Shown here: piece by piece, positions 1,201-60,139 of the stretch | How the letters are laid out: every line of letters begins with the position of its first letter | How positions within the stretch are numbered: position 1 is the first letter of the stretch | Assembly: GCA_023105745.1 (NCBI GenBank) | Contig: JALGQZ010000004.1 | Location: forward strand, 9,373,951-9,437,950 | Source of the DNA: Austropuccinia psidii | Lineage: Eukaryota > Basidiomycota > Pucciniomycetes > Pucciniales > Sphaerophragmiaceae | Direction of reading: 5' to 3' | Length of the DNA stretch: 64,000 nucleotides | Program-made: the position numbers and the translations under genes | The notes under the pieces: model-generated | What the model was told of the DNA's origin: nothing | Databases searched by the model: none | What the model saw: only the letters and a program-made list of their open reading frames with translations

Positions 1201-1240
1201 GACTGTCTAGATTCTTTCTGAGTATTGAGATAAAAGACTA

Positions 1241-1645
1241 ATTCCTCTTTGATAAGGCAGGAAGGCACTGCCACTGAGTGATAAGAGTGTTTAAAAAGAT
1301 TTAAGTAAATTGAAATTCCTCTTTTTGAAGGCAGGAGGTCACTGCCTTCAAGTGATAAGAGTCTTTAAAAAGATTTAAGTAAATTGAAATTCTTCTTTAA
1401 TAAGGCAGGAGGTCACTGCCCTTGAGTGATAAGATTGTTTAAAAAGATTTAAGTAAATTGAAATTCTTCTTTGATAAGGCAGGAGGTCACTGCCCTTGAG
1501 TGATAAGAGTGTTGTAAAAGATTTAAGTAAATTGAAATTCTTCTTTGATAAGGCAGGAGGTCACTGCCCTTGAGTGATAAGAGTGCTTAAAAATATTTAT
1601 GTAAATTGAAATTCCTCTTTGATAAGGCAGGAGGTCACTGCCCTT
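1241..1645. repeat. 74-bp minisatellite, about 5.5 copies
   Basis: The phrase GATAAGGCAGGAGGTCACTG recurs with its GGCAG ending at 1260, 1334, 1408, 1482, 1556 and 1630, a spacing of exactly 74 bases each time. Each unit also carries AGTGATAAGAGTGTTTAAAA and AAGTAAATTGAAATTC. Copies differ by a few substitutions and no indels. The array separates the two related GIKGNL frames. Confidence 0.95.
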
Positions 1646-8175: not shown

Positions 8176-10014
8176 TGTGAGCCTTAGAGGTAATTTCATA
8201 TACCCAAAAGACCACAAATATAAAAAATAACATATTAATATAAATAAAATAAATTTATTTATATTATTAAAATAAAAATCAAAATATAAATATAAAATTA
8301 TATTAAAAATAAAAAATTAATTACAATTTAAAAATAAAAAATACATTAAATTTTGTAAGTATAAAATTACTTTTATACTTGAAAAAATTAAGTAAAAATA
8401 AAATTTTAACAAAATTGTGAAAAAATAAATAAATTTGGAAAAAAGTTATATAAAAATTATCATAACTTTTTATCCAATAAATAAACACATAAAATTTATT
8501 TCACCATTGGATTCCTCATAAAAAATCAGGTGGGGTCACCTCTGAGTGAAATTCTTGTAACTCAACTCTAAATAAGCTTAAATTAAGTTTTTAGTATTTT
8601 CAATAGAAAAGTTGAAAATCCTCAAAACCTTAATTTAATTCACACCACATGTGGTGTTAACCATCAATTTTTGTGTTAAAATTGAGGTGTTGTGTTTAGT
8701 TTAGAAGTTATGAGGAATTGAAGTATTTTCAATTGAATTCAATTGAAATGTCAAAATGTGCGCGTGTATTACATAAGTGAACTTTGATTTACATATGAGG
8801 TATCAATTATTACTGTATTGTACTGTACAATTGAATTGAATCACATATATAAATTATAAGTATAATACATGATGAGGAATTAAAGGAAAAATAAATTGGA
8901 AAGATTAAATTTGGGGGGGAAAAGGAACTCCACCTCTAAGGGGGAGCTAGACCCCCAAATTCCTTGCTGACAGGCGTGGGATGTCAAAATTCACGCAAAA
9001 GTTCATCACTTTTGGCCTGGAATTGAGTTACAGGGTCTGTGAACTCAATTGATGATGAGGTTTTGATACCAACTGGGGTAGTTTTAGCTGTTGCCAAGAG
9101 GGTAAAACTACCCTTAAGATAAAACAATCATAGTAAAAACAGTTTTAACTGGCTTCTACGCCTCTGACACACATTCTGACGTGTTTTGAAGGCTCTAGGC
9201 CTGGTATTGCTATAGTAATGGCTGATTTAAGGGTCTAAAATGGCTAAAAATGGCTAAAAATGGCTTAAACCAGCCCTTTTTTGGTCTAAACCAGGGTTCA
9301 ATGATGCCATAATTGGCTTTTCTGTTGTCAGACTGTTTTTCACGACCGACAAGAGTAAATTTTACTTTTGAAGTAAGAGAATTGATGGCTATAAAAGAAT
9401 GTCTTCTTTGCCCCACTTTTCTCTTCATGTTAGAATCTTTTCCTTTTATTAATTAGTTTAAAACTGTTAAACCAATCAATAAAAGATTCCAACCACCCTT
9501 TTTAACTCATTTTGAACCTTTTAACCACGTGAAAAAATCATTATAATCATTTTTTGTAACTCTTATAATCATTTTTACCCCTGAACCACCCCAAAAGTGA
9601 ATTAAAGCATCTTTCATCACTGTAAACTTTGTCACTTTGTTTCCAAATTCACTCTGGTCACTTTTGGGCGTGTTTTTTCTTTAATATTCTTTTTAAAGAC
9701 TTTGTTCTTTAATTAATTGCTTGCAGTTCTTTGCTCAATTAATTCCAATTGAAATTGCTCTTGAAGAAATTTCTTTTGTAGCCTTAAAATATCTCTTGTA
9801 GAGTATTTTTTGGATAAATTTTTATTGTTGGTAAAACAATAAATTTTTATAATATTATTTTTTTATACTGATAAAGTTATAAACAATAAAATTGGCGTGT
9901 TTTCTCTTAAAAATAATATTTCATACTATTTTTAACTGAATTTTACCTTATACAAATTTTGAGGACAGGAAAAGTACTTGATTTTTAATCAAAGTTTCAT
10001 ATCCACACCTTACA
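8176..10014 (+). repeat. 5' LTR of A1
   Basis: 1,839 bp, from TGTGAGCCTTAGAGGTAA to CACACCTTACA. It matches 16436-18274 almost base for base. The left end holds a palindrome-like GGTA..TACC and the right end a stem-loop (9978-9992), both shared in form with families B, C and D. Confidence 0.97.
9390..9397 (+). promoter_or_regulatory. Probable TATA box of A1
   Basis: TATAAAAG lies 1,215 bp into the LTR, where a promoter between U3 and R would be expected. The same box is at 17650 in the 3' LTR and on the minus strand at 60962-60969 in A2. D has TATAAATA at a similar LTR depth. Confidence 0.55.
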
Positions 10015-10016
10015 TT

Positions 10017-10036
10017 TGGGGGCCCAGCCGTGATAT
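10017..10036 (+). promoter_or_regulatory. Primer-binding site of A1
   Basis: TGGGGGCCCAGCCGTGATA begins two bases after the LTR. B, C, D and A2 all have TGG(G/T/C)GGCC(T/C)(G/A)GCC(G/C)TGAT at the same place. Its complement fits a tRNA 3' end with discriminator C before CCA, and a T-stem/acceptor layout. Eukaryotic tRNA-Pro carries C at that position, so proline tRNA is a guess. Confidence 0.7.
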
Positions 10037-10218
10037 TTTACCTGTGACATATTTTTTTACTCTTTTTTAATCTTTTTTCTTATATTGAAAAATTTAAAAA
10101 AACATATAAAAAATACTTATAATTCAAAAAATCAATAAAAAATATTTTTTTTCATATTATAAGTGAGGCTTTAATTTTTTATTTCTTTTTTGAAATATCC
10201 TTTTTTTTACTTAATTAA

Positions 10219-11151
10219 TTGGCTTTTTCATTAATTTTAGTGTCTGACAACGTGGTAAGACAAGAAAATATTGAAACAGCCTCAACAGTAACCAGCATTA
10301 TCCTTGCCAGTACTGTTAATTCTGATCATAATAGTACTGTTATTGTGACTCAAAATAACCAACCTGAACCAATATCTTCTGAATTGATTAACTTGGACAT
10401 AAGTAATACCCTTCAGAAAGCTAAAAATTTGGCCAATAGTAAGTTTTTGACGTAAAAATACTATTTTAAGCCTTTTTAACCATAATTATGCCTTCAACCA
10501 GGTCAGGAGCCAGCTACAACCCCTCAAGCAGCTCCCAAAAAGGTAATAGACGTGATTATGGCAGAGGCCAATCAGGTACAGAAGGAAAAGGGTCAGTTGA
10601 TGACTTCCAAACAACTAAATTGGGTCATTCTGAAGCTGATAATACTATTTTACCTTCAAAAAGAGCTGACACCGCCACAAAAAGCCTCTGTGGACATATA
10701 CAAAGCCAGCCACAGTGCATACAACAATGCACTTCAATTCAAAGAGTACCAGATCCTTGCAGACCTGTGGAAGAATTGCATGAATTCTTACCTGACAGTA
10801 AGAAAATTCTTGGGCCATCCCAACACTTGCAAATTGCTCAATGGATGGCATCCATTGATGGAGAAGAAAAACATGATGCTTTTGACACTGGAATGGAGGA
10901 AAAACAACCCTCCACCACCAAAACCAGTGCCAAAAACAGCCCCAGTGGCCAGCAGCAGCAATTCCAACGTGAGAAAGCAGCCACAAACTCCAAACAAGGG
11001 CAAAGGGAAGGCACAAGCTCCAAAACCTTACAGCCAGGGCTACAGGATCCCAAAGATTCAGCAGGATGCCATGGAAAATGTATTTCAGATGGCCAGAACC
11101 ATGATGGAATTACAAAAGAAGGAGGAAGCCAGATTAAAGTTCCAGAAATGA
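10219..11151 (+). CDS. ORF-X of A1: predicted spliced protein overlapping Gag-Pol in the +1 frame
   Basis: Predicted join of 10219-10438 and 10502-11151, about 289 residues if the ATG at 10219 is used. The leader exon ends ..GCCAATA before a GTAAGT donor; the acceptor is CAACCAG at 10501. After joining, the frame runs in phase into the +1 frame over Gag-Pol and stays open to TGA at 11149-11151. Conserved parts compared with B, C and D are a DIYK..Q region, [12 protein letters not shown], a Pro/Lys-rich basic linker ([15 protein letters not shown]) and a C-terminal [21 protein letters not shown]. The basic linker suggests nucleic-acid binding; function is unknown. A2 has the same frame intact. 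An AG before TGTCTGAC (10240) may be a further acceptor, so the true start is unsure. Confidence 0.6.
10439..10501 (+). other. Predicted intron of A1 containing the Gag-Pol start codon
   Basis: 63 bases from GTAAGT to CAACCAG, a normal fungal intron size. It contains the ATG at 10488 of Gag-Pol, so splicing would remove that start and place ORF-X in frame. Introns at the matching point in B (66), C (63), D (87) and A2 (64) all have a GT..AG border and the same phase. Confidence 0.6.
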
Positions 11152-14100
11152 TTTCTGATATATTTGATTCCATCCCAGAGTTGTATGATGCTATAAAGGA
11201 CGTGAAAAAACATCTTTCTGATAAAAATGAATCCATTTGTAACAACATTAAAACAAACAACTTGAGCCTGTGCCAAATCAATGAAACACTTATGTGTTTT
11301 GAAAAGGTTTTAAGAACAATTAAAACTTCCAATAATGATACTTCTTTTGGCATTAAGATAAATGAACAATCTGCAGTTATTAAAGAATTAACAGAAAAAT
11401 ATTCTAAACTCAATATTGATGACATAATTGAGACAAGAATAAAACATGCCATTAGTACTATCAAAGAGGACAATAAAAAGACTCTGGATTATGTTTCAAA
11501 AGCATTTGCTGAAGTAAAGACAAATACAATTGCCTTGAAAAAGGATTTTGATACCTCAAAAGAGGAAATATCAAAATTAACAATGAAATTGAATGAAGTT
11601 ATATCTGATAATACTAGACAAACAGAGTTATGGAATGAGCTTACATATAAAGAGGATGAACATAAAAAGAATGTCATAAACTCTATACAAAGCTTACAAC
11701 ATGAGTTAAAAAATTCTCAAAGGTGTAACAACAGTAAAATGAATGATATTGAACAACTGCTAAACACCTTACCAAGGATGTCTACACCTCTGAACCAGAT
11801 CGAGGGTGCAAGAATTCCCAATCCACAAGTATTGGATGGAGAAAATTCACAGTTAAAAGATGAATTTTCTACCTCTTTTCATAACTTGGAACCATCAATG
11901 GGCCAAGCACTATTAAAAGAAGTTCCAAAACTTAAGGAATGGCCTCACTTCAGTGGTGAAGGAGAATATGACCATATGGAATTTATCAGAGGTATTGACA
12001 TGATCAAAGAAGATTTTGAATTACCAGACAGATTGGTGAAAGCCAGGTTTAACACCTTGTTTACCAAATCAGCTCACAGATGGTATATCAAATTGAGACA
12101 AGCACATGGACACAAGAGTTGGACTTGGTGGAAAACCCAAATTGTCAACAAATGGGCCAATGATGCATGGAGGTTTAAAGTTGAAACAGCCTTTGAATCC
12201 GCCAAATTTAATGCTGATAAAGACAAAGCCTTACCATGGTTTTGTCAACAAAAGGACAGGTTAACAGCATTATACCCTGACATGTCAGAATTTATGATTC
12301 ATAGAAAAATTCTAAGACAATGTGGAGGTGACTTAGAGCATGCTGTCAAGAGCAGGACTACTGAACAATCTTCAGCAGAAGACATTATCAATATATTAGA
12401 GGAAGTAACCACAAGAACCAGAATTGGTTCCAGTAGGGTGAATCTCAAAACAAGGTTTAATACACCTTGGAAGGATTCTGTGGACAAAAACCCCAAAGAA
12501 AACTCTAATAATATTAAAAATAAATCTGCAGATACAGTCAGAAAGTGCCATATTTGCCAAAGCACCACTCATTTAGCCAATACATGTCCAAAGAGAGGGA
12601 AAATCAATGAAATTGATGTGGAGAAAGAACCTGATGTTGAAAAAGATGACATAATTGAAGAAAATTCAGATGACAAGTCATCCATATTTTCTGAATCTTC
12701 AAAAGATATAGAAAATATCAATGCCACTTTTGACATCATGGAATCATATTCCCACTTGCCACAATTAAGCAATGGTCAACTTGATTTATCAAAAATCCAA
12801 GATGCACAACTCATGAAAACCAAACCAAACAGAGGAAAAGGTTATACAGCTGGTAACTCCTGTATAACAGAAGTGGTGATTGACAACAAACCCACTAAAC
12901 TTTTGCTTGACCCAGGAGCCTTCTGCTCTTGTGTTGGTAAATCTTTTCTTAAAACTTGTGTACCAAACTTTGAAGATCAATTATTGCCAATTGATGGCAT
13001 AAAATTCAATAGTGCAAGTAACCCAATGAAAGCATTGGGAATATTTGAGACTAGTTTCATATTTCCACATATCAATGGAAATTTAAGAATCACTGTTGAA
13101 TTTGTTGTTATTGAAAATTGCTCTAGTACCCATTTCATATTGGGAAATGATTATTTAATCATGTATGGCATAGATTTACACAACAACAAAGACAGATACT
13201 TTACTATTGGAGACAATAAGCGCCAAAAATTTGCCTTTTTACCATTTAAAAGAAAAATTACAGTAAACAAAGTATCACCAGTCAACTTAGAGTTAGAGAA
13301 ATTCAAGTCTGAACACTTAAATGAAGCTGAAATAAGCCTTCATTTGAGTGATAAACAAGAAAATGAACTCTTTTCTCTTTTATATGACCATAAAGAAGCA
13401 TTTGCCTCAGATAAAGAACCCCTAGGGGCAATCATTGGTCATGAAATTGATATTATTCTTAATATTGAGAGACCTTATCCACCACTCTTAAGAAGACCTG
13501 CATATCCAGCAAGTCCAAAATCAAGAGAAGCACTAGAAAGCCATATTAAAGAACTTTTAGACCTTGGTGTAATAAGAAAAGTAGGCCACAATGAAGAAGT
13601 AGAAATAACTACACCAGTCATAGTGGCTTGGCATAATGGAAAATCTAGAATGGTTGGGGACTTTAGAGCTCTGAACACTTATACTGTTCCAGACAGATAC
13701 CCAATTCCAAAGATCCAGATTGCCCTCACTCAAATATCTCAAGCAGTATGTATAAGCACTATGGATGCTCTTAAGGGATTTTATCAGAATGTGGTAACAC
13801 CAAGAGCAAGAAAGTATTTGAGAATCATTGTTCATTGTGGAGTTTATGAATATTTAAGAATGCCTTTTGGTATCAAAAATACACCTTCACACTTCCAAAG
13901 AATGATGAATGAAATCTTCCCTGAAGAACTTTCAGAAGGATGGTTAATCATTTACATTGATGACATTATAGTCTGCTCCAAAACTTGGGAAGAACATATA
14001 TACAGATTGTCCAGGGTTTTGACAAAAATTCAATCTGTCAATATGAAAATTTCTTTAAAGAAATGCCATTTTGGATTTAAAGAGCTTAAAGCACTAGGGC

Positions 14101-16412
14101 ATGTAGTATCTGGTTTATCTCTTGGAATTGACAAAAACAAAGTTGCAGCAGTACTGCTTAAACCCATGCCTCACAACAAAAAAGAAATTCAATCATTTTT
14201 GGGTTTTGCAGGGTATTACAGGCAACACATTAAAGATTTTGCATCCATAGCAAGACCTCTTTATAAGCTATGTGACAAAGACACAGTCTTTGAAATGACA
14301 GTTGACAGAGTAAAAGCCTTTGAATCTTTGAGACAAGCCTTGACCACTGCTCCACTCTTACTGATGCCAGACTTTAAGCTGCCCTTTAAGCTTTATATTG
14401 ATGCATCAGGAGATGGGCTAGGTGCTGCACTTCACCAAGTTCAGATTATAAATGATAAACCTGTAGAAGGACCCATATGTTTCATATCTAGGCAAATCAA
14501 ACCAACTGAAGCCAGATATGGAGCAAGTCAGATGGAGTGTTTATGCCTTGTTTGGGCTCTGGAAAAGCTAAATTACTTTCTAGAAGGATGTGTCTTTGAA
14601 GTAATAACAGATTGTACCGCTGTTAAATCACTTCTGAACATGAAAACACCCAACAGACATATGCTTAGATGGCAAATAGCCATACAAGAATATAGGGGCA
14701 ATATGACTATTGTTCACAAAGATGGCAATATTCATAAAAATGCAGATGGACTAAGCAGATGGCCATTACCAAATGATATTGATAATCCTGCTTATGTACC
14801 AGAAGAAGCCTCCCCACAAATTCCAATAGAAGGGATAAGTGTTACAGACTTAAACACCACCTTCTTTGAAGAAGTCAGAAACAGTTACACTCAAGATAAG
14901 AATTGTAGCATCTTATGCCAATTACTTAACAAGGACTGTAAGGACAACTCTCTTACACATGCCTTGGATGAAGTATGGAAAAAATCTTATGATGAAGGAA
15001 GATTTCACCTACTAGATGGTATAATTTACCACAGAACAAAACACACATGTGTTATGACAGTTGTGGACAGGTCACTAATCAATCTTGTACTGAAAGAATG
15101 CCATGATAGTCCCTTTTCAGGACATCTTTCTGAAGACAGAACAAGAGAGAAAGTGAAGACCTGCATATGGTGGCCAATGTGGCAGAAAGCTGTTGCAGAG
15201 TATTGCAAAACCTGTGACAGGTGCCAAAAGGCAAATAAATCCACTGGCAAAAGACTTGGAAATATGATGAAAATCCAAGAACCAAGCAGACCTTGGGAAA
15301 TTATCCATATGGATTGGGTAACTGGCCTACCACCAGGAGGTGACAGAAGCTATAATGCTTGCCTAGTAATTGTGGACAGATTCAGTAAAACTCCAATCTT
15401 TTTACCATGTCACAAAGATGATACAGCCATGGATACAGCTCTTCTGATATGGAATAGAGTAGTGTCATGGACTGGGATATTTACAAATATCATCAGTGAT
15501 AGAGATCCCAAATTCACTTCAGCACTATGGACAAATCTTCACCAATTATTTGGCACTAAACTGTCTTTTTCTACAGCCTACCACCCACCAACTGATGGCC
15601 TGGCTGAAAGAATGATCCAAACCTTAGAGGACATGGTAAGAAGATTTTGTGCATATGGCCTTGAATTCAAAGATTGTGATGGATTTACCCATGATTGGTG
15701 TACTCTGTTGCCAGCACTGGAATTGGCATATAAAACATCAATCCATGCCAGTACCAATCAGACTCCTGCTATTCTAGAAAAAGGATGGAACCCCAAGTTA
15801 CCCCAAGATTCCATGAGAAAAGACTTAATTGAAATACATCCCACAGCTGCTAGCTTCAAAGGAATGCTAGACAAAGCTAGAAGGCATGCAGTGAGATGCA
15901 TGGAGGACTCTTTTGCATATGCTAAAGACAAATGGGATAAATCACATGCAACTCCAGATTTCAAAGTGGGGGACCTAGTTCTTGTATCCACCACTAACTT
16001 CAATAACATCAAAGGATGTAAAAAATTGAAAGACTCCTTTGCAGGACCTTTTGTGATTAAAGCCCTCCATGGAGAAAATGCTGTTGAAGTAGAGTTATCT
16101 GAAGAGCTTAGCAATAAGCATCCTACATTTCCAGTGAGCTTGATAAAACCATATAAATCTAGTGATTCTGAGAAATTTCCCTTGAGGAATAAGGTTCCCC
16201 AAGTTATACCTCCTGTTGAGACATCTGGTACTAAGAAAATAACCAAAGTTCTTAAAGAAAGAAAATTAAGAACCAAGAAAGTAAGGGAATACCTTGTTAG
16301 GTACAGTGACCCAACTTGTGAAGATGAATGGTTAGAAGAAAAAGATATACCAGAAGCTACCAAACTCCTGAGGAGATTCAGACACACTAGAAACACCAAT
16401 ATTACAAAGTAA
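10488..16412 (+). CDS. Gag-Pol polyprotein of A1
   Basis: 1,974 residues without a stop. Residues 1-220 overlap ORF-X. Next comes a coiled-coil-like stretch (~220-440), then a Gag capsid-like domain (~480-660, [18 protein letters not shown]) and a CCHC knuckle (687-700, [14 protein letters not shown]). The protease site is at ~808 and RT at ~995-1190, with YIDD at 1156-1159. RNase H spans ~1300-1425 (YIDAS..MECL..TDC..NADGLSR). The integrase zinc finger is at ~1539-1580, and the core is D1609, D1671, E1707 (35 residues between the last two). A weak chromodomain lies at ~1930-1965 ([18 protein letters not shown]). Two oddities: the protease reads DPG instead of DTG/DSG, and the integrase reads HPPTDG where A2 and relatives have HPQTDG. 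Confidence 0.95.
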
Positions 16413-16435: not shown

Positions 16436-18274
16436 TGTGAGCCTTAGAGGTAATTTCATATACCCAAAAGACCAAAAATATAGAAAATAACATATTAATA
16501 TAAATAAAATAAATTTATTTATATTTTTAAAATAAAAATCAAAATATAAATATAAAATTATATTAAAAATAAAAAATTAATTACAATTTAAAAATAAAAA
16601 ATACATTAAATTTTGTAAGTATAAAATTACTTTTATACTTGAAAAAATTAAGTAAAAATAAAATTTTAACAAAATTGTGAAAAAATAAATAAATTTGGAA
16701 AAAAGTTATATAAAAATTATCATAACTTTTTATCCAATAAATAAACACATAAAATTTATTTCACCATTGGATTCCTCATAAAAAATCAGGTGGGGTCACC
16801 TCTGAGTGAAATTCTTGTAACTCAACTCTAAATAAGCTTAAATTAAGTTTTTAGTATTTTCAATAGAAAAGTTGAAAATCCTCAAAACCTTAATTTAATT
16901 CACACCACATGTGGTGTTAACCATCAATTTTTGTGTTAAAACTGAGGTGTTGTGTTTAGTTTAGAAGTTATGAGGAATTGAAGTATTTTCAATTGAATTC
17001 AATTGAAATGTCAAAATGTGCGCGTGTATTACATAAGTGAACTTTGATTTACATATGAGGTATCAATTATTACTGTATTGTACTGTACAATTGAATTGAA
17101 TCACATATATAAATTATAAGTATAATACATGATGAGGAATTAAAGGAAAAATAAATTGGAAAGATTAAATTTGGGGGGGAAAAGGAACTCCAGCTCTAAG
17201 GGGGAGCTAGACCCCCAAATTCCTTGCTGACAGGCGTGGGATGTCAAAATTCACGCAAAAGTTCATCACTTTTGGCCTGGAATTGAGTTACAGGGTCTGT
17301 GAACTCAATTGATGATGAGGTTTTGATACCAACTGGGGTAGTTTTGGCTGTTGCCAAGAGGGTAAAACTACCCTTAAGATAAAACAATCATAGTAAAAAC
17401 AGTTTTAACTGGTTTCTACGCCTCTGACACACATTCTGACGTGTTTTGAAGGCTCTAGGCCTGGTATTGCTATAGTAATGGCTGATTTAAGGGTCTAAAA
17501 TGGCTAAAAATGGCTAAAAATGGCTTAAACCAGCCCTTTTTTGGTCTAAACCAGGGTTCAATGATGCCATAATTGGCTTTTCTGTTGTCAGACTGTTTTT
17601 CACGACTGACAAGAGTAAATTTTACTTTTGGAGTAAGAGAATTGATGGCTATAAAAGAATGTCTTCTTTGCCCCACTTTTCTCTTCATGTTAGAATCTTT
17701 TCCTTTTATTAATTAGTTTAAAACTGTTAAACCAATCAATAAAAGATTCCAACCACCCTTTTCAAATCATTTTGAACCTTTTAACCACGTGAAAAAATCA
17801 TTATAATCATTTTTTGTAACTCTTATAATCATTTTTACCCCTGAACCACCCCAAAAGTGAATTAAAGCATCTTTCATCACTGTAAACTTTGTCACTTTGT
17901 TTCCAAATTCACTCTGGTCACTTTTGGGCGTGTTTTTTCTTTAATATTCTTTTGAAAGACTTTGTTCTTTAATTAATTGCTTGCAGTTCTTTGCTCAATT
18001 AATTCCAATTTAAATTGCTCTTGAAGAAATTTCTTTTGTAGCCTTAAAATATCTCTTGTAGAGTATTTTTTGGATAAATTTTTATTGTTGGTAAAACAAT
18101 AAATTTTTATAATATTATTGTTTTATACTAATAAAGTTATAAACAATAAAATTGGCGTGTTTTCTCTTAAAAATAATATTTCATACTATTTTTAACTGAA
18201 TTTTACCTTATACAAATTTTGAGGACAGGAAAAGTACTTGATTTTTAATCAAAGTTTCATATCCACACCTTACA
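16436..18274 (+). repeat. 3' LTR of A1
   Basis: 1,839 bp, same ends and length as the 5' LTR. Visible differences are scattered substitutions (for example GACCGAC to GACTGAC, and AACTCATT to AAATCATT). Confidence 0.97.
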
Positions 18275-23137: not shown

Positions 23138-24129
23138 TTTTCTAGTGTCTTTGATCAAGTAATGTGCAGCTGGCAACAGACTCAGTAAAAGATATATCAC
23201 TAGTCCAGAATCTGAGGACATTATTGAGGTGCAAATTGCTAAAAGAGGCACCTTATTTAACTCAGAAAAGACTAAATTACCACAAAAAGGTGTGTATTTT
23301 ATCTTATATTTTTCACCTTTTATCTTTAAATTGACGTGAAGATGGTGCATACCAGAAATGGAAGCAACTATTCAGTCCAACCAGATGGATGTGGACAAGG
23401 AAGAGGCAAGACCAAATCCAGAAGTGCCAGGTCTTCCACAAGAAAGACACATTTGGAGGATACCAGAGTTTCCCCCCCATTCCCCAAGGTCTGTACCCAC
23501 AGATTTTGATGTGAATTCTGAGCCTGAACTGATTCATGACAATATTTCCAGGCCTGAACCATTTTTAAGTGGCAGCAATAGAAATATATCAATGCCAGTA
23601 CAAAAATTGGTTCAGAGCAGCCAAAGAAGAGGAGTGGGAAATATGCCCAAGCCTTTGGCGGGGGCCATGAATGTCCCACTTACACATCAAGAGCTTTCTG
23701 GGTCAGGAGAAGACCATAGAACTCTTAGGAGGATGGAGCCCCCTGTCTTGCAAAGACAAGACAAAAAAGATAAAAAATTGGTTGAAGAACCAAAGTCTTT
23801 TATCCATAGACCAGAAGAAGGAAATGGAAATGACTCCAGCTTTGGAGACAGAGGCCCCAGGGGCCTCTACCAGCTCCAAACCAGCTCCAGAAGTGTGCAA
23901 AGACAAGCCCAAAGGACCTCAGAAGAAGCAGAGGAGTCCCAAGAACCATCAAGGCAAGGGCAAAGGCAAAGCCAATTGGCACAGACCTTACCCACAGGGG
24001 TACAGGATCCCCAAATTGGAGCCTTCAGCCATGGACAGTGTATTCAACATGGCGAGAACTCTCATGGAATTTACAGCCAAGGAGCAGGAAAGGATGAACA
24101 GGACTTTTCCACGCAAACAGATCATGTAA
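23138..24129 (+). pseudogene. ORF-X of B (decayed, three predicted exons)
   Basis: Predicted exons end at 23289 and 23488 and resume at 23356 and 23552; introns are 66 and 63 bases with GTGTGT..CCAG and GTCTGT..CCAG. Exon 2 reads EATIQSNQMDVD and RHIWRIPEFPP. Exon 3 reads YQCQYKNWFRAAKEEEWE, FLGQEKTIELLGGW and, at the end, YRIPKL..SAMDSVFNMARTLMEF, then stops at 24127. Damage: a stop (TAA) near 23566, a one-base insertion in the C run near 23475, and a minus-one/plus-one pair around 23665-23673. The protein match to C, frame for frame, is better than that of the Gag-Pol frame. Start uncertain. Confidence 0.5.
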
Positions 24130-24560: not shown

Positions 24561-26711
24561 TGTGAGCCTGTGAGGTATGTATAACATACCCATAAGGCCA
24601 CAAATGATTTTATAAACAGTTAATTTTGTCTTAAACAGACTTTTTAGTTGAAATAAAAATAAAAAATAACAAAAAATAAGTATAAATTTTTTTTGGATAA
24701 ACAAAGTTATAAATATTATGTCATTTTTGGATTCTACACCAAAAATGACCTAGGGTACATCCATAAGGTGTTATACCCAAAAATACTTATTTCTTGTGTT
24801 ATTAGAAGATTTAAGAATCTCACAGTACTAATGTAACTTTCTAACATTTTTTCAAAATTGTTAAATTTAAGCTTAAATAAGCTTAAATTTAAAGTTGCAT
24901 AAGGTTAATGCAAACTTACCAAGATTTTAGTTAAAATTAAGGTGTTGTGTATATTTACTGAATTGGCTAAGGATTTGCCATACAGAATGTAAATCCTGTG
25001 TGAGCTCAATTTAAAATGTTTAAGGCCATAGTATGGCTTTAAATAAATAAAAGGGCAAAATCCACGCAAAATGGTGGGACAAAGGAAAAAGACCAAATAA
25101 AGCTGGGGTACCCAACTTTTTGGATCTGCAATGATTCAATTAAGGTTGTCCACCTGTATTGGAGGATTTTCAACCTTATTTAAACTTCAAGATTAGACTT
25201 TGATCCAACCTTAAGGTTTAAACTGGTTTTATCCCAATTTGGACAGGAATTTCAAGCTGCCAAAGGGTAAATCCCAATATGCAGGCTTGAAATAAAGGTT
25301 TTAAGAACTGCCAAAGCTTAATAAAGCTTAAAAACCTTAAATAAGCTTAAAACTTCAAGGTTAAAAGCATTAAAACCTTATCAAAAGTTAAGGTTTGGTG
25401 TGTATTGCTATTTTACATGGAAAAATAGCAATAACTTCAAAAATTCATCAAAAATCCAATTCTTAATGGATTTGCTTGAAAATTGCACACAGCTTAGAAT
25501 GTAATATTATCTAAATATAAATTAAATTTTAAGTATCTCTTATAAATAAGTTTCCTGAGTAATTAGACTGGAAATTTACTCTTTTAATTAAGCTCAAAGA
25601 AAATTATGATTTCTTTAAAAATTAATTAAAAATTGAGTTTAGGAGATTTCTGCTTGAAACTCTATTTTTAAGTTGTTCATTTGATGAACTTTAATATAAA
25701 AAAACTTATTTTATATTAAAACTTAAAATAATTAATCTAAATGAGGATTAAAGTTACTTGGAGTTAAGAATAACACTGGTAACTTTAAATTGGAATTAAA
25801 AACAAGTTGCCTTAAGTTAAGAACTTTGTTTTTAAGCATGGTTTTTCAGTTTTGGCCTGAGCACGCCCTGTATATTCATTATGAATCATGAGAGCTTCTC
25901 TGAAGACATAAAAAGAGTCTTTTCATCACTGTTTTCGTCCATCATTCATTATCAAGCCAATCATATTAGAACTTTAAACAGGTACAGTTTTATTATTTAA
26001 AAAATCTTATTATCCAAGTAATTCTTAAGTTATTTTATTCTTTATTAATTGCAAATTAAAGAATTGAAATCATAGAATTCAGATCATTGTTGTAATCATC
26101 AATAATATATTTTATATTATAAAATTATCATCTTAAATATCTTTTAAAATCCACAAATTCCTCTCAAAAACTCTTTAATCATAATTTTATTATAAAAAGT
26201 TGTTTTATCTTTGAAAATATTTATTTTTTGCGTGTTTTTAACTTATCATTATTACTTAATATAATACCTGTTGTTGTTTTACTTATTGTATTAAATAAAT
26301 ATTATAAGTAAGTTTTCTTTAAAGTTCTATATTTTTTTTATATAGAGTTTTATTCTATAAGAATTATTTCTGCACAGTGTGTGTTATAATTCTTTTATAA
26401 ATAATATTTATATTATTTATAAGTGGTTGATCTTTATATTTTCCACGTGTAATTGTCTCATTAAGAGCTTTACACTTCTTATTGTTATAACTGTCAGTGA
26501 CTATAACAATAATAGAATAATTATAATTTATTATAATTATTATTATTTTTTTTTATTATATTTTTATAATAATAATTAAATTTATTTTTTCAATAATTAT
26601 ATTTAAATTTGTGGTTATAATATTTTGTTATATTATATATTTCTACTGAGGACAGTCATAGTACTCTTGATTTCGCTACTATTATCAAGAGTTTCATAGA
26701 CAAGCCTTACC
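24561..26711 (+). repeat. 5' LTR of C
   Basis: About 2.15 kb, from TGTGAGCCTGTGAGGTATG. The last base is C where CA would be expected (CCTTACC), so the terminal dinucleotide has mutated. It contains a possible TATA-like CATAAAAAG near 25907 and a GTACTCTTGAT...ATCAAGAG stem-loop at the end. Clear matches run throughout to 44014-46202. Confidence 0.93.
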
Positions 26712-26733: not shown

Positions 26734-27249
26734 TAAACCAATTTTTGGGACATAAATCATATTCTAGACCTTATTTTACTATTTTTTGACGTAAAATTGC
26801 CATATTTGTCTTAATATTGGCTTTTTTGGGACTTATCCCTTATAAATAATCTTTATAATATTAATAAAGATATTTTTTTCTTAAGAATATTGTTTTAAAA
26901 AATATACTATTTAGTGACTTGGAATAAATTTCTTTTGTCTAACTAGTGGCTATTTCACATCACAGACTTGAAATTTATACTTTCAGTTATTCTAGTATAA
27001 AGTGAATAATAATACAATTTTGATTAATTAACTTGTTAATTGCATAATTATTATTTCTTTAAAGAAAATAAAAAATCAAATAAAAAATCTTTACTAAAAA
27101 CATTTTTTTCTTCTATCTTAGACATTTTTCTTTATTTTTGACCTAATTTTCCATAAAGTTACATTAAAACAACTTTATTTAATAAGTTGAGTTTATAAGT
27201 TATTTTTATTATTTGATGAAATAACTTATATTTTTAATTTTCTCTAGTG

Positions 27250-28194
27250 TCTTCCATCAAAGAAAATTCCTCAGACTCTGAAGCCTCCGAGTCCAGTATT
27301 TAAATTCAAACCAGCCCACCACCAAGGGGTTTGATAATCAAAGAGCTCTTTAACAGTCCTGCAGGTGAAATCAATTCAATTTTACCCTATTTCTTTATTA
27401 AAATTGACGTGAAATGACTCCTACTAGAAGTGGAAGTAACTACTCCATCCAATCAAATGGATCTGGACTAGGACATTCCAGCCACAAATCAAAAAGGCAA
27501 GAATGTCTTCCCAGAGGAGAGGCACAAATGGAAGATTCCAGAACTTCCACCAGTTCCCAAAGGCTAGCTAGCACCTTTAAACCTCTTATTGAGATTCCAG
27601 AAGCTGACATAACTGCTATTGCTGTTAGACCTGAACCATTTGCAACAGGCAGCTGTGGAAACTTATCAATGTCAATGGAAGAACTGGTTCTTGGCCTCAA
27701 AACAACAAGAGTGGGAACTTCTCCCAAGTCTTTGGATAGGCACCATGAACTCTTATCTTCAAGTAAAGAAGTTCATGGGACCAGAAAAGACAGAAGATCT
27801 TCTGATGGGTTGGACACCCATGTCTGTCAAAGGACAAGTCCAACAGATAAAAGCTTGGTTGAAAAACCAAAGCATGTTATCAGAGGATCAGAAGAAGAAG
27901 TTGGCCCAAGGCAAGGAAAACAGCCCAGTGGAAGCTCCCCAAGCATCCACCAGCAAAAATCCGCCTCAACAAGTGCCAAACAAGCCCAAGCAAGCCCGAA
28001 AGACCAACCAGAAGGGCAAGCAAAAGGCAAAGGGAAAGGCAAAACCCAAGTGGAACAAGCCTTACCCTCAGAATTACAGAATACCAAAGAAGGAAAAGAC
28101 AGGCATGGATAATGTGTTCAATATGGCAAGAACCTTGATGCAATTCAAAAACAAGGAGGAGGAAAGATTGAACCAATCTTTCCCAAAGAAATAG
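27250..28194 (+). pseudogene. ORF-X of C (three predicted exons, some stops)
   Basis: Predicted exon 1 ends at 27364 (CCTGCAG before GTGAAA), exon 2 is 27428-27562 and exon 3 is 27629-28194; introns are 63 and 66 bases. Both joins keep one phase. Exon 2 reads VEVTTPSNQMDLD then, after TAG, EERHKWKIPELPPVPK. Exon 3 is open for 188 codons and contains QQEWELLPSLWIGTMNSYLQ, then KKFMG and a Lys-rich linker, ending YRIPKK...MDNVFNMARTLMQF..KEEERLNQ. The second donor is GCTAGC where D has GCAAGT, so it may be dead. The leader exon also has stops. The final codons overlap TTTCCCAAAG (28179-28188). Confidence 0.5.
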
Positions 28195-35005: not shown

Positions 35006-35026
35006 TTCCCTACCACCAAAAAAGAT
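35006..35026 (-). promoter_or_regulatory. Polypurine tract of D
   Basis: On the minus strand TTTTTTGGTGGTAGGGAA abuts the 3' LTR. C shows the same GGNGGTAGGGAA before its LTR. Confidence 0.75.
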
Positions 35027-39860: not shown

Positions 39861-40922
39861 TTATGAAGTCTTTTCTTCAAATTTTTCTACAGAAATACTT
39901 AATTTATTCAATTTTTCTGTAAGATTGTCAATACTCACATCATAATTGATTGTCAAAGTTTTGTCTTTGATATCTTTTATGTATTTATACAATTCTTGTT
40001 GTCCTTGTATTAATTTTTGAGTATTGTCAATTAAATTCTTTGGTTTATTATTTTCAACAATAAACTTAATGTTGTCAATTTCTTTCTTGTTTTGCACAAC
40101 AATTTTTGTTAAAGAAGATAAATTGTTATTTATTTCTTGTAGTGATAATAAACTGTCTTTAATTTCTTTTAGAGGTAATATACTATTTTTAATTTCTGTT
40201 AAAGTATTTACAACATCTTTGGACAAGGTTATTTCTTTGGGAAATGAGGTTGTCTCATTCTTTGCTCTTCCTTGTCCTTGAATTCCATCAAGGTTCTGGC
40301 CATGTTGAAAACATTGTCCATGGCATCCTTTTGGATTCTTGGGATTCTGTAGCTCGGGGAATATGGTTTCCTCCAATGCTTTTTCTTATTCTTCTTCCCT
40401 TCTTGGGGAAGTGGGTTGGCTTGGGGCTTGCTGGTAGAAGCTACTGGGGCTTCTTCCTTGGTTGCCTCCCTCTTTTTGGCATGGTAATCCTTGATTTTTT
40501 TGATTTGAGGTTTGGATGACAGTGGATTCCATCCATTGGAGTATTTCACTATCTCCTCCTCTTTGAGGAACTTTTTCAGGATGTGCCAGGAGTTCATCAC
40601 TCCCTGGTGTATTTGAGGCAACATTTCCCAATCTTTGTCCTTGTACACTGTGCAATACTGTTTGTACTGGCTCATGTAGATGTCTATTTGAGCCCTCTGA
40701 ATGTGATTTGTACCTGTTTGAGTTACTCATACTTAGTTCTAATTCAGGCTCAGATATCATGGGCATTTCTGGGACTTGCCTTTGGGATAAGGCACTTCCT
40801 TGTGTGGATTCTGTTCCACTGGGGATATTGCCCTTTCTTTTCCCTTTTGAGGGATCAATTCTACCTCTGAGTCCAGCTCCATCTGATTGGATGGAGTATT
40901 GGGAACCTCTTCTGGTAGTCAT
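39861..40922 (-). pseudogene. Gag-Pol frame of D upstream of the open part
   Basis: In the same phase as the 35124-39845 frame: ATG at 40922 (MTTRRGSQYSIQ), stop TAA at 40386-40388, then open to TAA at 39861-39863. The second part has Asn/Lys/Ile-rich coiled-coil text. The first stop lies where ORF-X overlaps and would be harmless if Gag-Pol is reached by frameshift from ORF-X. The second stop would not. Confidence 0.65.
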
Positions 40923-41212
40923 AATTAAAGAATAAGAAAAAATAAAAGTATTTTAGAATAAAAATTCTTTTATGGCAATTATAAAAAGAGGTGCTCACCT
41001 TCAGAGTCTTGAATGGTGGGTCCTGGAAAGTCTAATTTCTTAGCTTTCTTTCTTTTGGTGATAACTGGTGTTGGAGAACTTTGACAAGTTTCTTCCACCA
41101 ACCTCTCAACAGTAGCTTGGTTATCTTCTGTTGGGTTATCTTCAAACACTAAAAAAGACAAATAAATATAAGTCTTTATATAAGAAGTGTTATTTTTGGC
41201 AAGATATGGCAA
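40229..41212 (-). CDS. ORF-X of D: predicted three-exon protein, intact
   Basis: Predicted join on the minus strand of 41212-40999, 40911-40780 and 40713-40229, about 276 residues if the ATG at 41212 is used. Intron 1 (87 bases) runs GTGAGC..ACCAG. Intron 2 (66 bases) runs GCAAGT..AACAG, the consensus form of a GC-AG intron. Both leave phase 1 and all three exons are open. Exon 1 is acidic then basic (KRKKAKKLDFPG, possibly nuclear-localising). Exon 2 reads EVPNTPSNQMELD. Exon 3 contains DIYMSQYKQYC, DWEMLPQIHQGVMNSW, LKKFLK, a basic linker and YRIPRIQKDAMDNVFNMART. TTTTTTAG just before GTTTGAAGAT may be another acceptor, so the true start is uncertain. No known family recognised. Confidence 0.6.
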
Positions 41213-43675: not shown

Positions 43676-43680
43676 TACCC
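43676..43680. repeat. Target site duplication of D, right copy (TACCC)
   Basis: Direct copy of 32976-32980 following the D LTR end CTCACA. Confidence 0.95.
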
Positions 43681-46202: not shown

Positions 46203-46207
46203 GTTTT
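46203..46207. repeat. Target site duplication of C, right copy (GTTTT)
   Basis: Direct copy of 24556-24560. Confidence 0.85.
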
Positions 46208-47397: not shown

Positions 47398-47501
47398 TTA
47401 ATTGTGGTTATAATAATATTTATTATTATATTTCATAAGAACAGACATAGTATTGTTGATTAATAGTGATATTATCATCAGTTACATGGTCACATCTTAC
47501 A
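47398..47501 (+). repeat. Remnant of B's 3' LTR
   Basis: From TTAATTGTGG on, the sequence matches 22553-22656 of the 5' LTR with few changes and ends ATCTTACA before AACCT. The shared TTAATTG at the joint suggests deletion at a short homology. Confidence 0.88.
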
Positions 47502-56900: not shown

Positions 56901-59869
56901 ATAATATCAATTTCATGACCAACAATTGCCCCTAGGGGTTCTTTATCTGAGGCAAATGCTCCTTTATGGTCATATAAAAGAGAAAAGAGTTCATTTTCTT
57001 GTTTATCACTCAAATGAAGGCTTATTTCAGCTTCATTTAAGTGTTCAGACTTGAATTTCTCTAACTCTAAGTTGACTGGTGATACTTTGTTTACTGTAAT
57101 TTGTCTTTTAAATGGTAAAAAGGCAAATTTTTGGCGCTTATTGTCTCCAATAGTAAAGTATCTGTCTTTGTTGTTGTGTAAATCTATGCCATACATGATT
57201 AAATAATCATTTCCCAATATGAAATGGGTACTAGAGCAATTTTCCATAACAACAAATTCAACAGTGATTCTTAAATTTCCATTGATATGTGGAAATATGA
57301 CACTAGTCTCAAATATTCCCAATGCTTTCATTGGGTTACTTGCACTATTGAATTTTATGCCATCAATTGGCAATAATTGATCTTCAAAGTTTGGTACACA
57401 AGTTTTAAGAAAAGATTTACCAACACAAGAGCAGAAGGCTCCTAGGTCAAGCAAAAGTTTAGTGGGTTTGTTGTCAATCACCACTTCTGTTATACAGGAG
57501 TTACCAGCTGTATAACCTTTTCCTCTGTTTGGTTTGGTTTTCATGAGTTGTGCATCTTGGATTTTTGATAAATCAAGTTGACCATTGCTTAATTGTGGCA
57601 AGTGGGAATAAGATTCCATGATGTCAAAAGTGGCATTGATATTTTCTATATCTTTTGAAGATTCAGAAAATATGGATGACTTGTCATCTGAATTTTCTTC
57701 AATTATGTCATCTTTTTCAACATCAGGTTCTTTCTCCACATCAATTTCATTGATTTTCCCTCTCTTTGGACATGTATTGGCTAAATGAGTGGTGCTTTGG
57801 CAAATATGGCACTTTCTGACTGTATCTGCAGATTTATTTTTAATATTATTAGAGTTTTCTTTGGGGTTTTTGTCCACAGAATTCTTCCAAGGTGTATTAA
57901 ACCTTGTTTTGAGATTCACCCTACTGGAACCAATTCTGGTTCTTGTGGTTACTTCCTCTAATATATTGATAATGTCTTCTGCTGAAGATTGTTCAGTAGT
58001 CCTGCTCTTGACAGCATGCTCTAAGTCACCTCCACATTGTCTTAGAATTTTTCTATGAATCATAAATTCTGACATGTCAGGGTATAATGCTGTTAACCTG
58101 TCCTTTTGTTGACAAAACCATGGTAAGGCTTTGTCTTTATCAGCATTAAATTTGGTGGATTCAAAGGCTGTTTCAACTTTAAACCTCCATGCATCATTGG
58201 CCCATTTGTTGACAATTTGGGTTTTCCACCAAGTCCAACTCTGGTGTCCATGTGCTTGTCTTAATTTGATATACCATCTGTGAGCTGATTTGGTAAACAA
58301 GGTGTTAAACCTGGCTGTCACCAATCTGTCTGGTAATTCAAAATGTTCTTTGATCATGTCAATACCTCTGATAAATTCCATATGGTCATATTCTCCTTCA
58401 CCACTGAAGTGAGGCCATTCCTTAAGTTTTGGAACTTCTTTTAATAGTGCTTGGCCCATTGATGGTTCCAAGTTATGAAAAGAGGTAGAAAATTCATCTT
58501 TTAACTGTGAATTTTCTCCATCCAATACTTGTGGATTGGGAATTCTTGCACCCTCATTCTGGTTCAGAGGTGTAGACATCCTTGGTAAGGTGTTTAGCAG
58601 TTGTTCAATATCATTCATTTTACTGTTGTTACACCTTTGAGAATTTTTTAACTCATGTTGTAAGCTTTGTATAGAGTTTATGACATTCTTTTTATGTTCA
58701 TCCTCTTTATATGTAAGCTCATTCCATAACTCTGTTTGTCTAGTATTATCAGATATAACTTCATTCAATTTCATTGTTAATTTTGATATTTCCTCTTTTG
58801 AGGTATCAAAATCCTTTTTCAAGGCAATTGTATTTGTCTTTACTTCAGCAAATGCTTTTGAAACATAATCCAGAGTCTTTTTATTGTCCTCTTTGATAGT
58901 ACTAATGGCATGTTTTATTCTTGTCTCAATTATGTCATCAATATTGAGTTTAGAATATTTTTCTGTTAATTCTTTAATAATTGCAGATTTTTCATTTATC
59001 TTAATGCCAAAAGAAGTATCATTATTGGAAGTTTTAATTGTTCTTAAAACCTTTTCAAAACACATAAGTGTTTCATTGATTTGGCACAGGCTCAAGTTGT
59101 TTGTTTTAATGTTGTTACAAATGGATTCATTTTTATCAGAAAGATGTTTTTTCACGTCCTTTATAGCATCATACAACTCTGGGATGGAATCAAATATATC
59201 AGAAATCATTTCGGGAACTTTAATCTGGCTTCCTCCTTCTTTTGTAATTCCATCATGGTTCTGGCCATCTGAAATACATTTTCCATGGCATCCTGCTGAA
59301 TCTTTGGGATCCTGTAGCCCTGGCTGTAAGGTTTTGGAGCTTGTGCCTTCCCTTTGCCCTTGTTTGGAGGTTGTGGCTGCTTTTTCACGTTGGAAATGCT
59401 GCTGCTGGCCACTGGGGCTGTTTTTGGCACTGGTTTTGGTGGTGGAGGGTTGTTTTTCCTCCATTCCAGTGTCAAAAGCATCATGTTTTTCTTCTCCATC
59501 AATGGATGCCATCCATTGAGCAATTTGCAAGTGTTGGGATGGCCCAAGAATTTTCTTACTGTCAGGTAAGAATTCATGCAATTCTTCCACAGGTCTGCAA
59601 GGATCTGGTACTCTTTGAATTGAAGTGCATTGTTGTATGCACTGTGGCTGGCTTTGTATATGTCCACAGAGGCTTGTTGTGGCGGTGTCAGCTCTTTTTG
59701 AAGGTAAAATGGTATTATCAGCTTCAGAATGACCCAATTTAGTTGTTTGGAAGTCATCAACTGACCCTTTTCCTTCTGTACCTGATTGGCCTCTGCCATA
59801 ATCACGTCTATTACCTTTTTGGGAGCTGCTTGAGGGGTTGTAGCTGGCTCCTGACCTGGTTGAAGGCAT
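53945..59869 (-). CDS. Gag-Pol polyprotein of A2
   Basis: 1,974 residues, colinear with A1 and differing at a few dozen positions at most by eye. RT (YIDD), RNase H and integrase residues are intact and, unlike A1, the integrase has the family-typical HPQTDG. The CCHC knuckle is intact. The protease site is DLG; A1 has DPG; relatives C, D and B have DSG or DTG. So neither copy has the usual catalytic triplet, although both frames are fully open. If these proteases are inactive, the copies would need protease in trans; a non-standard active site is less likely. Confidence 0.95.
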
Positions 59870-60139
59870 AATTATGGTTAAAAAAGGCTTAAAATAGTAT
59901 TTTTACGTCAAAAACTTACTATTGGCCAAATTTTTAGCTTTCTGAAGTGTATTACTTATATCCAAGTTAATTAATTCAGAAGATATTGGTTCAGGTTGAT
60001 TATTTTGAGTCACAATAACAGTACTATTATGATCAGAATTAACAGTACTGGCAGGGATAATGCTGGTTACTGTTGAGGCTGTTTCAATGTTTTCTTGTCT
60101 TACCACGTTGTCAGACACTAAAATTAATGAAAAAGCCAA
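59206..60139 (-). CDS. ORF-X of A2: predicted spliced protein
   Basis: Predicted join on the minus strand of 60139-59920 and 59855-59206. The 64-base intron again contains the Gag-Pol ATG (59869). The frame is open throughout and almost identical to A1's, ending ..RLKFPK. The codon at the end differs from A1 (TTCCCG for TTCCAG), which makes it closer to the TTTCCCAAAG of C and D. Two intact copies with both frames open over ~220 codons argue against chance. Confidence 0.6.

What the first reader, a model, noticed from the sequence alone, without database searches (positions are those of the whole stretch)
10219..11151. A second protein (ORF-X) encoded in the +1 frame over the 5' end of Gag-Pol, intact in A1 and A2
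Seen: over 10502-11151 both the Gag-Pol frame and the +1 frame are open for ~215 codons in A1 and again in A2 (59206-59855). The +1 product matches the +1 products of B, C and D: MNS(Y/W), KKF(L/M)G, a basic Lys/Pro linker, then YRIP(K/R)...MDNVFNMARTLMEF. Over the same bases the Gag-Pol frame is less conserved between families and has stops in C and D. Known: overlapping accessory frames are common in retroviruses but are rarely reported in fungal gypsy elements. Inferred: ORF-X is a real protein, perhaps nucleic-acid binding.
Basis: partly seen in the sequence, partly recalled or inferred. Interest (0 to 1): 0.88.

Follow-up and report, generated by a model that had tools for sequence, protein, structure and literature searches.

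The report
Spliced hidden gene inside rust retrotransposons
A very abundant kind of jumping element in a gigabase rust-fungus genome hides a second protein gene overlapping the start of its main gene, and RNA splicing appears to choose which of the two is made, much as retroviruses make their regulatory proteins.

Summary
ORF-X is a real, selected protein, but not a simple +1 ORF: 10502-11151 contains the last two coding exons of a spliced gene. In A1, X is 258 aa, read from an AUG that splicing creates (A at 10162 joined to TG at 10241), over exons 10241-10438, 10502-10591 and 10664-11151. One A-family copy elsewhere (L076; two LTRs, 5-bp target duplication) lacks exactly these three GT-AG introns, so the spliced RNA was made and reverse-transcribed. 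The Gag-Pol AUG (10488) lies inside intron 1. It is the first AUG after a 1,058-nt AUG-free leader (13 expected). Splicing therefore removes the Gag-Pol start and creates the X start. Between subfamilies, X is under strong purifying selection (exon 1: 10 silent, 1 replacement). Over exon 2b the overlapping Gag-Pol frame is kept open (0-1 stops, about 6-8 expected), although its amino acids are nearly free. Closest known analogue: CERV of C. elegans Cer1, a spliced, partly frame-overlapping protein needed for genomic-RNA export. That X does the same job is inferred (about 0.4). Spread beyond Austropuccinia could not be tested. New variant of a known kind.

The parts
8176..10014 (+). 5' LTR of A1 (3' LTR 16436-18274; 5-bp target duplication CAATT on either side)
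   Evidence: 99.2% identical pair; flanks read
9430..10487 (+). 1,058-nt leader of A1 without any AUG before the Gag-Pol AUG (transcription start not mapped; TATA-like at 9390)
   Evidence: 0 ATG observed, mean 13.2 (minimum 4) in 2,000 dinucleotide shuffles; A2 likewise 0; LTR stretch 8200-9380 has 16, itself under its shuffled mean of 25.4
10163..10240 (+). Intron 0 (78 bp, GTGAGG...TTTTAG); its removal joins A|TG and makes the X start codon
   Evidence: precisely absent from processed copy L076; all three introns GT-AG in 31 of 31 A rows, intron 0 length 73-79
10241..10438 (+). X exon 1 (coding, X only; begins with TG of the split AUG whose A is 10162)
   Evidence: length 198 in 31 of 31 A rows; near-fixed A versus A' differences 10 silent: 1 replacement
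10439..10501 (+). Intron 1 (63 bp, GTAAGT...CAG), holding the Gag-Pol start codon
   Evidence: absent from L076; spliced junction found at 1 place in the 1.015-Gb genome, 0 mismatches with 3 allowed, reversed control 0; length 63-66 in A
10488..10490 (+). Gag-Pol start codon inside intron 1, 14 nt before the exon
   Evidence: first AUG of the unspliced leader after 9427; ATG at the matching place in B, C, D
10502..10591 (+). X exon 2a, overlapping Gag-Pol in the other frame
   Evidence: length 90 in 31 of 31 A rows
10592..10663 (+). Intron 2 of X (72 bp, GTCAGT...AAG); coding for Gag-Pol in unspliced RNA
   Evidence: absent from L076 (alignment ambiguous by one G); 72 bp in 31 of 31 A rows, 63 in 30 of 30 B rows
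10664..11151 (+). X exon 2b, main domain, basic linker, C-terminal helix and TGA stop
   Evidence: 258-aa X; constraint in X frame
10488..16412 (+). Gag-Pol ORF, 1974 aa (weak CCHC-like knuckle, RT, RNase H, integrase)
11148..11151 (+). ATGA: X stop overlapping an in-frame Gag-Pol ATG (A family only)
   Evidence: 15 of 15 copies L061-L075; no such overlap in B, C, D
59206..60117 (-). A2 X gene: exon 1 60117-59920, Gag-Pol ATG 59869, exon 2a 59855-59766, intron 2 59765-59694, exon 2b 59693-59206
23146..24129 (+). B X gene (this copy frame-damaged): exon 1 23146-23289, Gag-Pol ATG 23342, exon 2a 23356-23488, intron 2 23489-23551, exon 2b from 23552
   Evidence: intact in 16 of 30 B rows
27248..28194 (+). 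C X gene (2 internal stops in this copy): exon 1 27248-27364, Gag-Pol ATG 27414, exon 2a 27428-27562, intron 2 27563-27628 (GC donor), exon 2b 27629-28194
40229..41148 (-). D X gene, open over all coding exons (255 aa): exon 1 41148-40999, Gag-Pol ATG 40922, exon 2a 40911-40780, intron 2 40779-40714 (GC donor), exon 2b 40713-40229

Best explanation
These Ty3/gypsy elements carry two genes over one 5' region, and splicing decides which is read. Unspliced RNA (also the genome that is normally copied) has no AUG for over 1 kb until 10488, inside intron 1; ribosomes start there and make Gag-Pol. When introns 0, 1 and 2 are removed, that AUG is lost and a new one is made at the exon junction A|TG; ribosomes then make X, a basic, mostly helical protein of about 255-281 aa. 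X is the sequence that selection conserves in exon 2b. There Gag-Pol only has to stay open, so most of its N-terminal extension is probably a tolerated tail. Shown: the splicing, the split AUG (A family), the AUG-free leader, selection on X, forced openness of Gag-Pol. Inferred: translation of each form, and that X acts in the nucleus on the intron-containing genomic RNA, limiting its splicing and aiding export, like Cer1 CERV or retroviral Rev (about 0.4 for this function).
For: Processed copy L076 lacks exactly 10163-10240, 10439-10501 and 10592-10663 and is otherwise colinear, with two LTRs and target duplication AGGAA. Its leader junction reads TATTATAA|TGTCTGAC, making ATG. Leader 0 ATG versus 13.2. 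In 31 A rows introns 0 and 1 vary in length, while exons and intron 2 are constant; Gag-Pol open in 31 of 31 and X in 27 of 31. In 30 B rows exon 1 is 144 or 159 nt (a difference of 15), intron 1 64-66, intron 2 always 63. Selection: exon 1 10 silent: 1 replacement (expected 2.6: 8.0); exon 2b in X 24: 13 (expected 8.3: 27.0), in Gag-Pol 8: 29 (expected 8.4: 26.7), no stop in either (expected 1.7 and 1.9). Differences concentrate at X codon position 3 in 6 of 6 family pairs. Gag-Pol openness in all four families. MF-1 gene models, pattern count over 169 proteins held (167 database hits, 2 own translations): 15 spliced at A junction 1 and 1 retained; 20 of the 26 B/C-like models that reach exon 2a spliced at junction 2.
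Against: Only one processed copy was found, in family A, and its X has two stops; the B junction search did not complete. Intron 0 donors of B-D were not located, and intron 2 donors of C and D are GC, not GT. By simple pattern, 39 MF-1 A models keep intron 2 against 8 that splice it (the pattern misses at least two spliced ones). Intron 0 does not change clearly faster than exon 1 (6.4 against 5.6 per 100). The LTR control stretches are also short of ATG, though less (16 against 25.4, 11 against 21.6). The transcription start is not mapped; ATGs at 9385, 9399 and 9427 lie before the AUG-free stretch. No RNA-seq, ribosome or peptide data were available. Nuclear-export-like matches are not above shuffled expectation and NLS-like matches are scattered, so the function rests on analogy and gene logic.
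Confidence: 0.85

Rival explanations
1. X is a structural or nucleic-acid-chaperone protein of the particle (a spliced-RNA 'extra Gag'), not a regulator.
For: Basic linker, C-terminal helix and helical domain; Gag and Pol share one ORF, so extra structural protein from another RNA could be useful (inference).
Against: No Pfam match for X, whereas its Gag-Pol has its own weak CCHC-like knuckle match; no significant fold match at all, so none to a capsid or matrix. This is weak evidence.
Confidence: 0.3
2. Gag-Pol really starts downstream, by termination-reinitiation at ATGA 11148 in the spliced mRNA; the upstream Gag-Pol frame is fortuitous.
For: ATGA in 15 of 15 copies L061-L075; Gag-Pol amino acids over exon 2b evolve as if neutral.
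Against: Fortuitous openness is rejected in all four families; 31 of 31 A rows open; the upstream ATG is the first AUG of the leader; B, C, D have no ATGA. It could still give a minor short Gag-Pol in A.
Confidence: 0.1
3. X is made from unspliced RNA by initiation at a non-AUG codon or by frameshifting (CCCAAAG near the X stop of C and D could fuse X to Gag-Pol by -1 shift).
For: CCCAAAG can be read just before the X stop in C and D (from the sequence behind).
Against: The heptamer is absent in A and B; exon 1 lies in front of the Gag-Pol AUG and is selected in the X frame, which needs splicing or an upstream start; introns are removed in L076.
Confidence: 0.05
4. The overlap is only a by-product of low-stop composition; neither X nor the Gag-Pol extension matters.
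For: The + strand is A-rich over the element, which lowers stop density.
Against: Codon-preserving shuffles and silent/replacement counts reject it.
Confidence: 0.01

Closest known systems
CERV of Cer1 (C. elegans Ty3/gypsy element; PMC10309623: abstract, sections 6 and 9, and passages read)
   Same: A non-Gag protein from a multiply spliced mRNA of an LTR element, partly in a frame different from the overlapping polyprotein; no obvious homology outside its own group; unspliced RNA is the genome and the polyprotein mRNA.
   Different: CERV is 517 aa, and its exons 1-3 share the Gag frame; X is in another frame throughout, and its AUG is made by splicing. CERV's export role is shown; X's is not tested.
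Retroviral Rev/Tat/Rex-type accessory genes (recalled)
   Same: Made from fully spliced RNA, overlapping other frames; unspliced RNA makes Gag-Pol.
   Different: X overlaps the 5' end of Gag, not env; no arginine-rich motif was seen; no known relation.
Plant LTR elements with additional ORFs, including spliced env-like ORFs such as barley Bagy2 (review PMC7264820, first of three parts read)
   Same: Conserved extra ORF in most copies; in Bagy2 a spliced message.
   Different: The review says the most frequent ones lie between pol and the 3' LTR; X lies at the 5' end and overlaps Gag-Pol in another frame.
S. cerevisiae Gcr1, unspliced and spliced isoforms (PMC7826247, search listing with start of abstract only)
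   Same: A fungal case where unspliced and spliced transcripts give different proteins.
   Different: A host gene with isoforms of one protein, not two unrelated overlapping proteins.

Membership tests
Ty3/gypsy LTR retrotransposon | LTR pair with short target duplication | tested here: met
   A1 LTRs 99.2%, CAATT duplication; L076 element LTRs 97.3%, AGGAA
Ty3/gypsy LTR retrotransposon | Pol order RT, RNase H, integrase | tested here: met
   RVT_1 830-986, RNase H 1053-1182, H2C2/rve 1306-1480, SH3_Tf2-1
CERV-type spliced accessory gene | encoded by a spliced mRNA of the element | tested here: met
   three introns absent from processed copy; no RNA data
CERV-type spliced accessory gene | uses a frame other than the overlapping polyprotein | tested here: met
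CERV-type spliced accessory gene | required for export of unspliced genomic RNA | not testable with these tools
   needs experiment
CERV-type spliced accessory gene | sequence homology with CERV | not tested
   CERV sequence not fetched; 0 non-Austropuccinia rows among the 120 listed of 1909
Rev-like RNA-export factor | nuclear export signal and basic nuclear signal | tested here: inconclusive
   export-like matches 1, 1, 1, 0 in A-D against 2.7, 2.1, 1.6, 0.6 in shuffles; basic clusters differ by family (its D sequence was misjoined by one base, so the D figures do not count)
No apical meristem-associated C-terminal domain (UniRef name of some X proteins) | Pfam match | tested here: not met
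   no such match at E up to 1 in 7 X proteins nor at E up to 0.01 in 2 more
MIT-domain three-helix bundle | fold of residues ~35-120 | tested here: inconclusive

The most novel reading that the evidence does not exclude
Rust-fungus Ty3/gypsy elements independently evolved a retrovirus-like early/late switch. A spliced early RNA, with a start codon that exists only after splicing, makes a Rev/CERV-like protein that then lets intron-containing genomic RNA leave the nucleus. Because the Gag-Pol AUG lies inside the intron, any spliced RNA that is reverse-transcribed by mistake is a dead end, which protects the intron.
Probability: 0.35. Interest if true: 0.88.

Novelty: new variant of a known kind. 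Interest (0 to 1): 0.74.

Why it matters
Retrovirus-like expression by alternative splicing is known from few LTR retrotransposons (Cer1 is the clearest case I found in print; barley Bagy2 has a spliced env-like message). Here it appears in a very abundant Ty3 group of a gigabase fungal genome, with a compact logic (start codon in the intron, start codon made by splicing, AUG-free leader) that can be tested in laboratory yeast. It also bears on annotation: many 'hypothetical proteins' of Austropuccinia psidii MF-1 are this element protein (604, 1,909 and 841 database hits, overlapping sets; the 120 listed in each call are all A. psidii), which matters when proteins are counted or mined for effectors.

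Tried and rejected

Literature: 9 search calls, 8 answered (one search was an argument error). I saw in their listings no fungal LTR element with a spliced, Gag-overlapping accessory gene; subscription journals and preprints are mostly not held, so this is weak evidence of absence. PMC12210899 on rust TE bursts: passages only; no 'splic' or 'gag' in its text.

Full report
WHERE. The window lies in a 1.015-Gb genome of 84 contigs. The 120 listed protein relatives in each are Austropuccinia psidii MF-1, so this is A. psidii or very close to it (inference). A1 and A2 are full Ty3/gypsy elements (10.1 kb, 98.3% alike; domains). Published work on A. [quoted passage not shown] A protein search with one X relative gave 39,971 loose first-look candidates, of which 150 were scored, so the family is very large; this is not a copy count.

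OBSERVATION. Both frames are open as described, and the +1 product is shared by A, B, C and D. The openness is not chance. Shuffling synonymous codons while keeping X gives 8.5 Gag-Pol stops on average over 10504-11148, and A1 has none. For exon 2b alone, A1, B (L032), C and D have 0, 0, 1 and 1 stops against 5.7, 7.2, 7.8 and 5.7 expected, while the third frame is not depleted.

ANATOMY. Lining up the families showed X-frame stops at one place in B-D, conserved TAG|TG ahead of an upstream open stretch, and intron borders of equal phase. This predicted three introns. The test was to look for a genomic copy made from spliced RNA. The junction of exons 1 and 2a occurs once in the genome, with no mismatch although 3 were allowed, and its reversed control not at all. 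At that place (L076) all three introns are missing at their exact borders: 10163-10240, 10439-10501, 10592-10663, the last ambiguous by one G. The rest of the element is colinear, with two LTRs 97.3% alike and a target duplication AGGAA. Its own X has two stops. A separate search for the junction of exons 2a and 2b found the same locus only. The leader junction makes ATG from A and TG, so the X start codon exists only after splicing. Spliced A1 X has 258 aa, B 281 (L032; one search prints 282 including the stop), D 255; C in the window has two internal stops.

START CHOICE. The Gag-Pol ATG 10488 lies in intron 1. From 9430 to 10487 there is no ATG in A1, nor in the matching stretch of A2, against about 13 in shuffles. 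LTR stretches outside it are also short of ATG, but far less (16 against 25.4 and 11 against 21.6). The transcription start is not mapped: a TATA-like site lies at 9390 and ATGs at 9385, 9399 and 9427. Of 29 A copies with the standard ATG (L001, which is A1, included; L018 differs at one base and was not counted), 16 have no leader ATG, 12 have one and one has five. Older B copies have 1-6 per 1,000 nt (24 counted, 6 without the standard ATG left out). In the spliced leader, too, the first AUG after 9428 is that of X. From exon 1 to the Gag-Pol ATG there is no ATG in A1, B (L032), C or D, although for C and D alone this would not be surprising (P 0.17, 0.14). Unspliced RNA thus offers Gag-Pol first, spliced RNA offers X first. 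A consequence (inference): a reverse-transcribed spliced RNA loses the Gag-Pol start and should be a dead end, which would explain why intron-bearing copies dominate.

SELECTION. Ten A rows (A1, A2, seven of L001-L030, L075) were set against twelve A' copies 12-17% diverged from A1. L065 and L074 were left out for frame or exon 1 damage. The 15 places fetched, of 150 listed, include 12 without stops in the match, so they lean to intact copies. Near-fixed differences (at least 80% of A rows, 70% of A' rows) are 10 silent and 1 replacing in exon 1 (expected 2.6 and 8.0). In exon 2b they are 24 and 13 for X (expected 8.3 and 27.0) and 8 and 29 for Gag-Pol (expected 8.4 and 26.7), with no stop in either. 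Intron 1 before the ATG changes at 14.3 per 100 sites, exon 1 at 5.6, but intron 0 only at 6.4. Exon 2a and intron 2 have only 6 differences each and say little. Between families, differences fall mostly at X codon position 3 in 6 of 6 pairs, and X identity is 0.40-0.56 against 0.23-0.34 for Gag-Pol. Gag-Pol similarity beyond what X imposes is small (z 0.7-2.4) and like that of the third frame (z -0.3 to 3.1). Between A1 and the L076 element, Gag-Pol further down is constrained as usual (dN/dS 0.29 just after X, then 0.09, 0.04, 0.07), against 0.93 over exon 2b, where X has 0.33. An exception is the very start of Gag-Pol, roughly M..TR.GS.YS, which is alike in A-D. Within family B, polymorphism shows no clear constraint in either frame.

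COPIES. Of 31 A rows (30 fetched loci, one of them A1, and A2), spliced X is intact in 27, Gag-Pol is open across the overlap in 31, both in 27, and all three introns are GT-AG in 31. Introns 0 and 1 vary in length; exons and intron 2 do not. Of 30 B rows: X 16, Gag-Pol 16, both 10, introns 1 and 2 GT-AG 30; L032-L034 lie near one another and may be copies of one insertion. Of the 15 copies L061-L075: X 8, Gag-Pol 7, both 5, introns 1 and 2 GT-AG 10. B exon 1 is 144 or 159 nt in 30 of 30 rows, while intron 1 is 64-66. The four intron 2 lengths (A 72, B 63, C 66, D 66) are multiples of three, as Gag-Pol needs.

GENE MODELS. MF-1 annotation, made elsewhere, uses the same junctions: 15 proteins spliced at A junction 1 and 1 retained; A junction 2 spliced in 8 and kept in 39; in B/C-like models 20 of 26 with exon 2a spliced (simple patterns over the 169 proteins then held, which miss at least two spliced A models). 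Several models begin at SDN or the like, just after the split start codon. I do not know whether RNA evidence entered those models.

PROTEIN. X of A1 has an acidic N-terminal part, a helical domain, a basic K/P/Q linker with 10 K/R and no D/E, and a C-terminal helix. The better model (C-like P0125, pLDDT 73.8, pTM 0.48) gives three-helix-bundle matches only at chance level. No Pfam family passes its cut-off.

HOW IT PROBABLY WORKS. By gene logic it resembles CERV of Cer1, from a five-exon spliced mRNA with one exon in another frame than gag, needed for genomic-RNA export (PMC10309623). I put 0.4 on X being such a regulator, 0.3 on a structural or chaperone role, and the rest on something else. 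That splicing chooses the start is much firmer (0.85).

Noticed in passing
A. psidii MF-1 protein sets: Many annotated 'hypothetical' or 'No apical meristem-associated' proteins are X proteins of these elements; the Pfam domain behind the latter name was not detected in the nine X proteins scanned.
   Followed up: partly
window 10838-11473 (-), 10645-11016 (-), 58884-59519 (+), 38830-39444 (+): Long antisense ORFs over the X/Gag region in A1 and A2, and one of 204 aa in D; perhaps only the A-rich coding strand, not tested.
   Followed up: no
window 1240-1645: Tandem array with a period of about 74 bp, copies about 91% alike (self-comparison).
   Followed up: no
window 32981-35010 and 41652-43680; 24561-26710 and 44014-46201: LTR-like pairs (98.8% and 94%) suggest that D is nested in or abuts the C and B elements.
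   Followed up: no
window 46199-47399: Fragment of a further Gag-Pol family (about 46% identical to A in protein).
   Followed up: no
L076-L080 (G000:C2:43877594 onward): A full LTR element made from spliced RNA: a rare intron-less retrocopy of a retrotransposon itself.
   Followed up: yes
C and D, just before the X stop: CCCAAAG heptamer in a frame that would allow a -1 shift from X into Gag-Pol; absent in A and B.
   Followed up: partly
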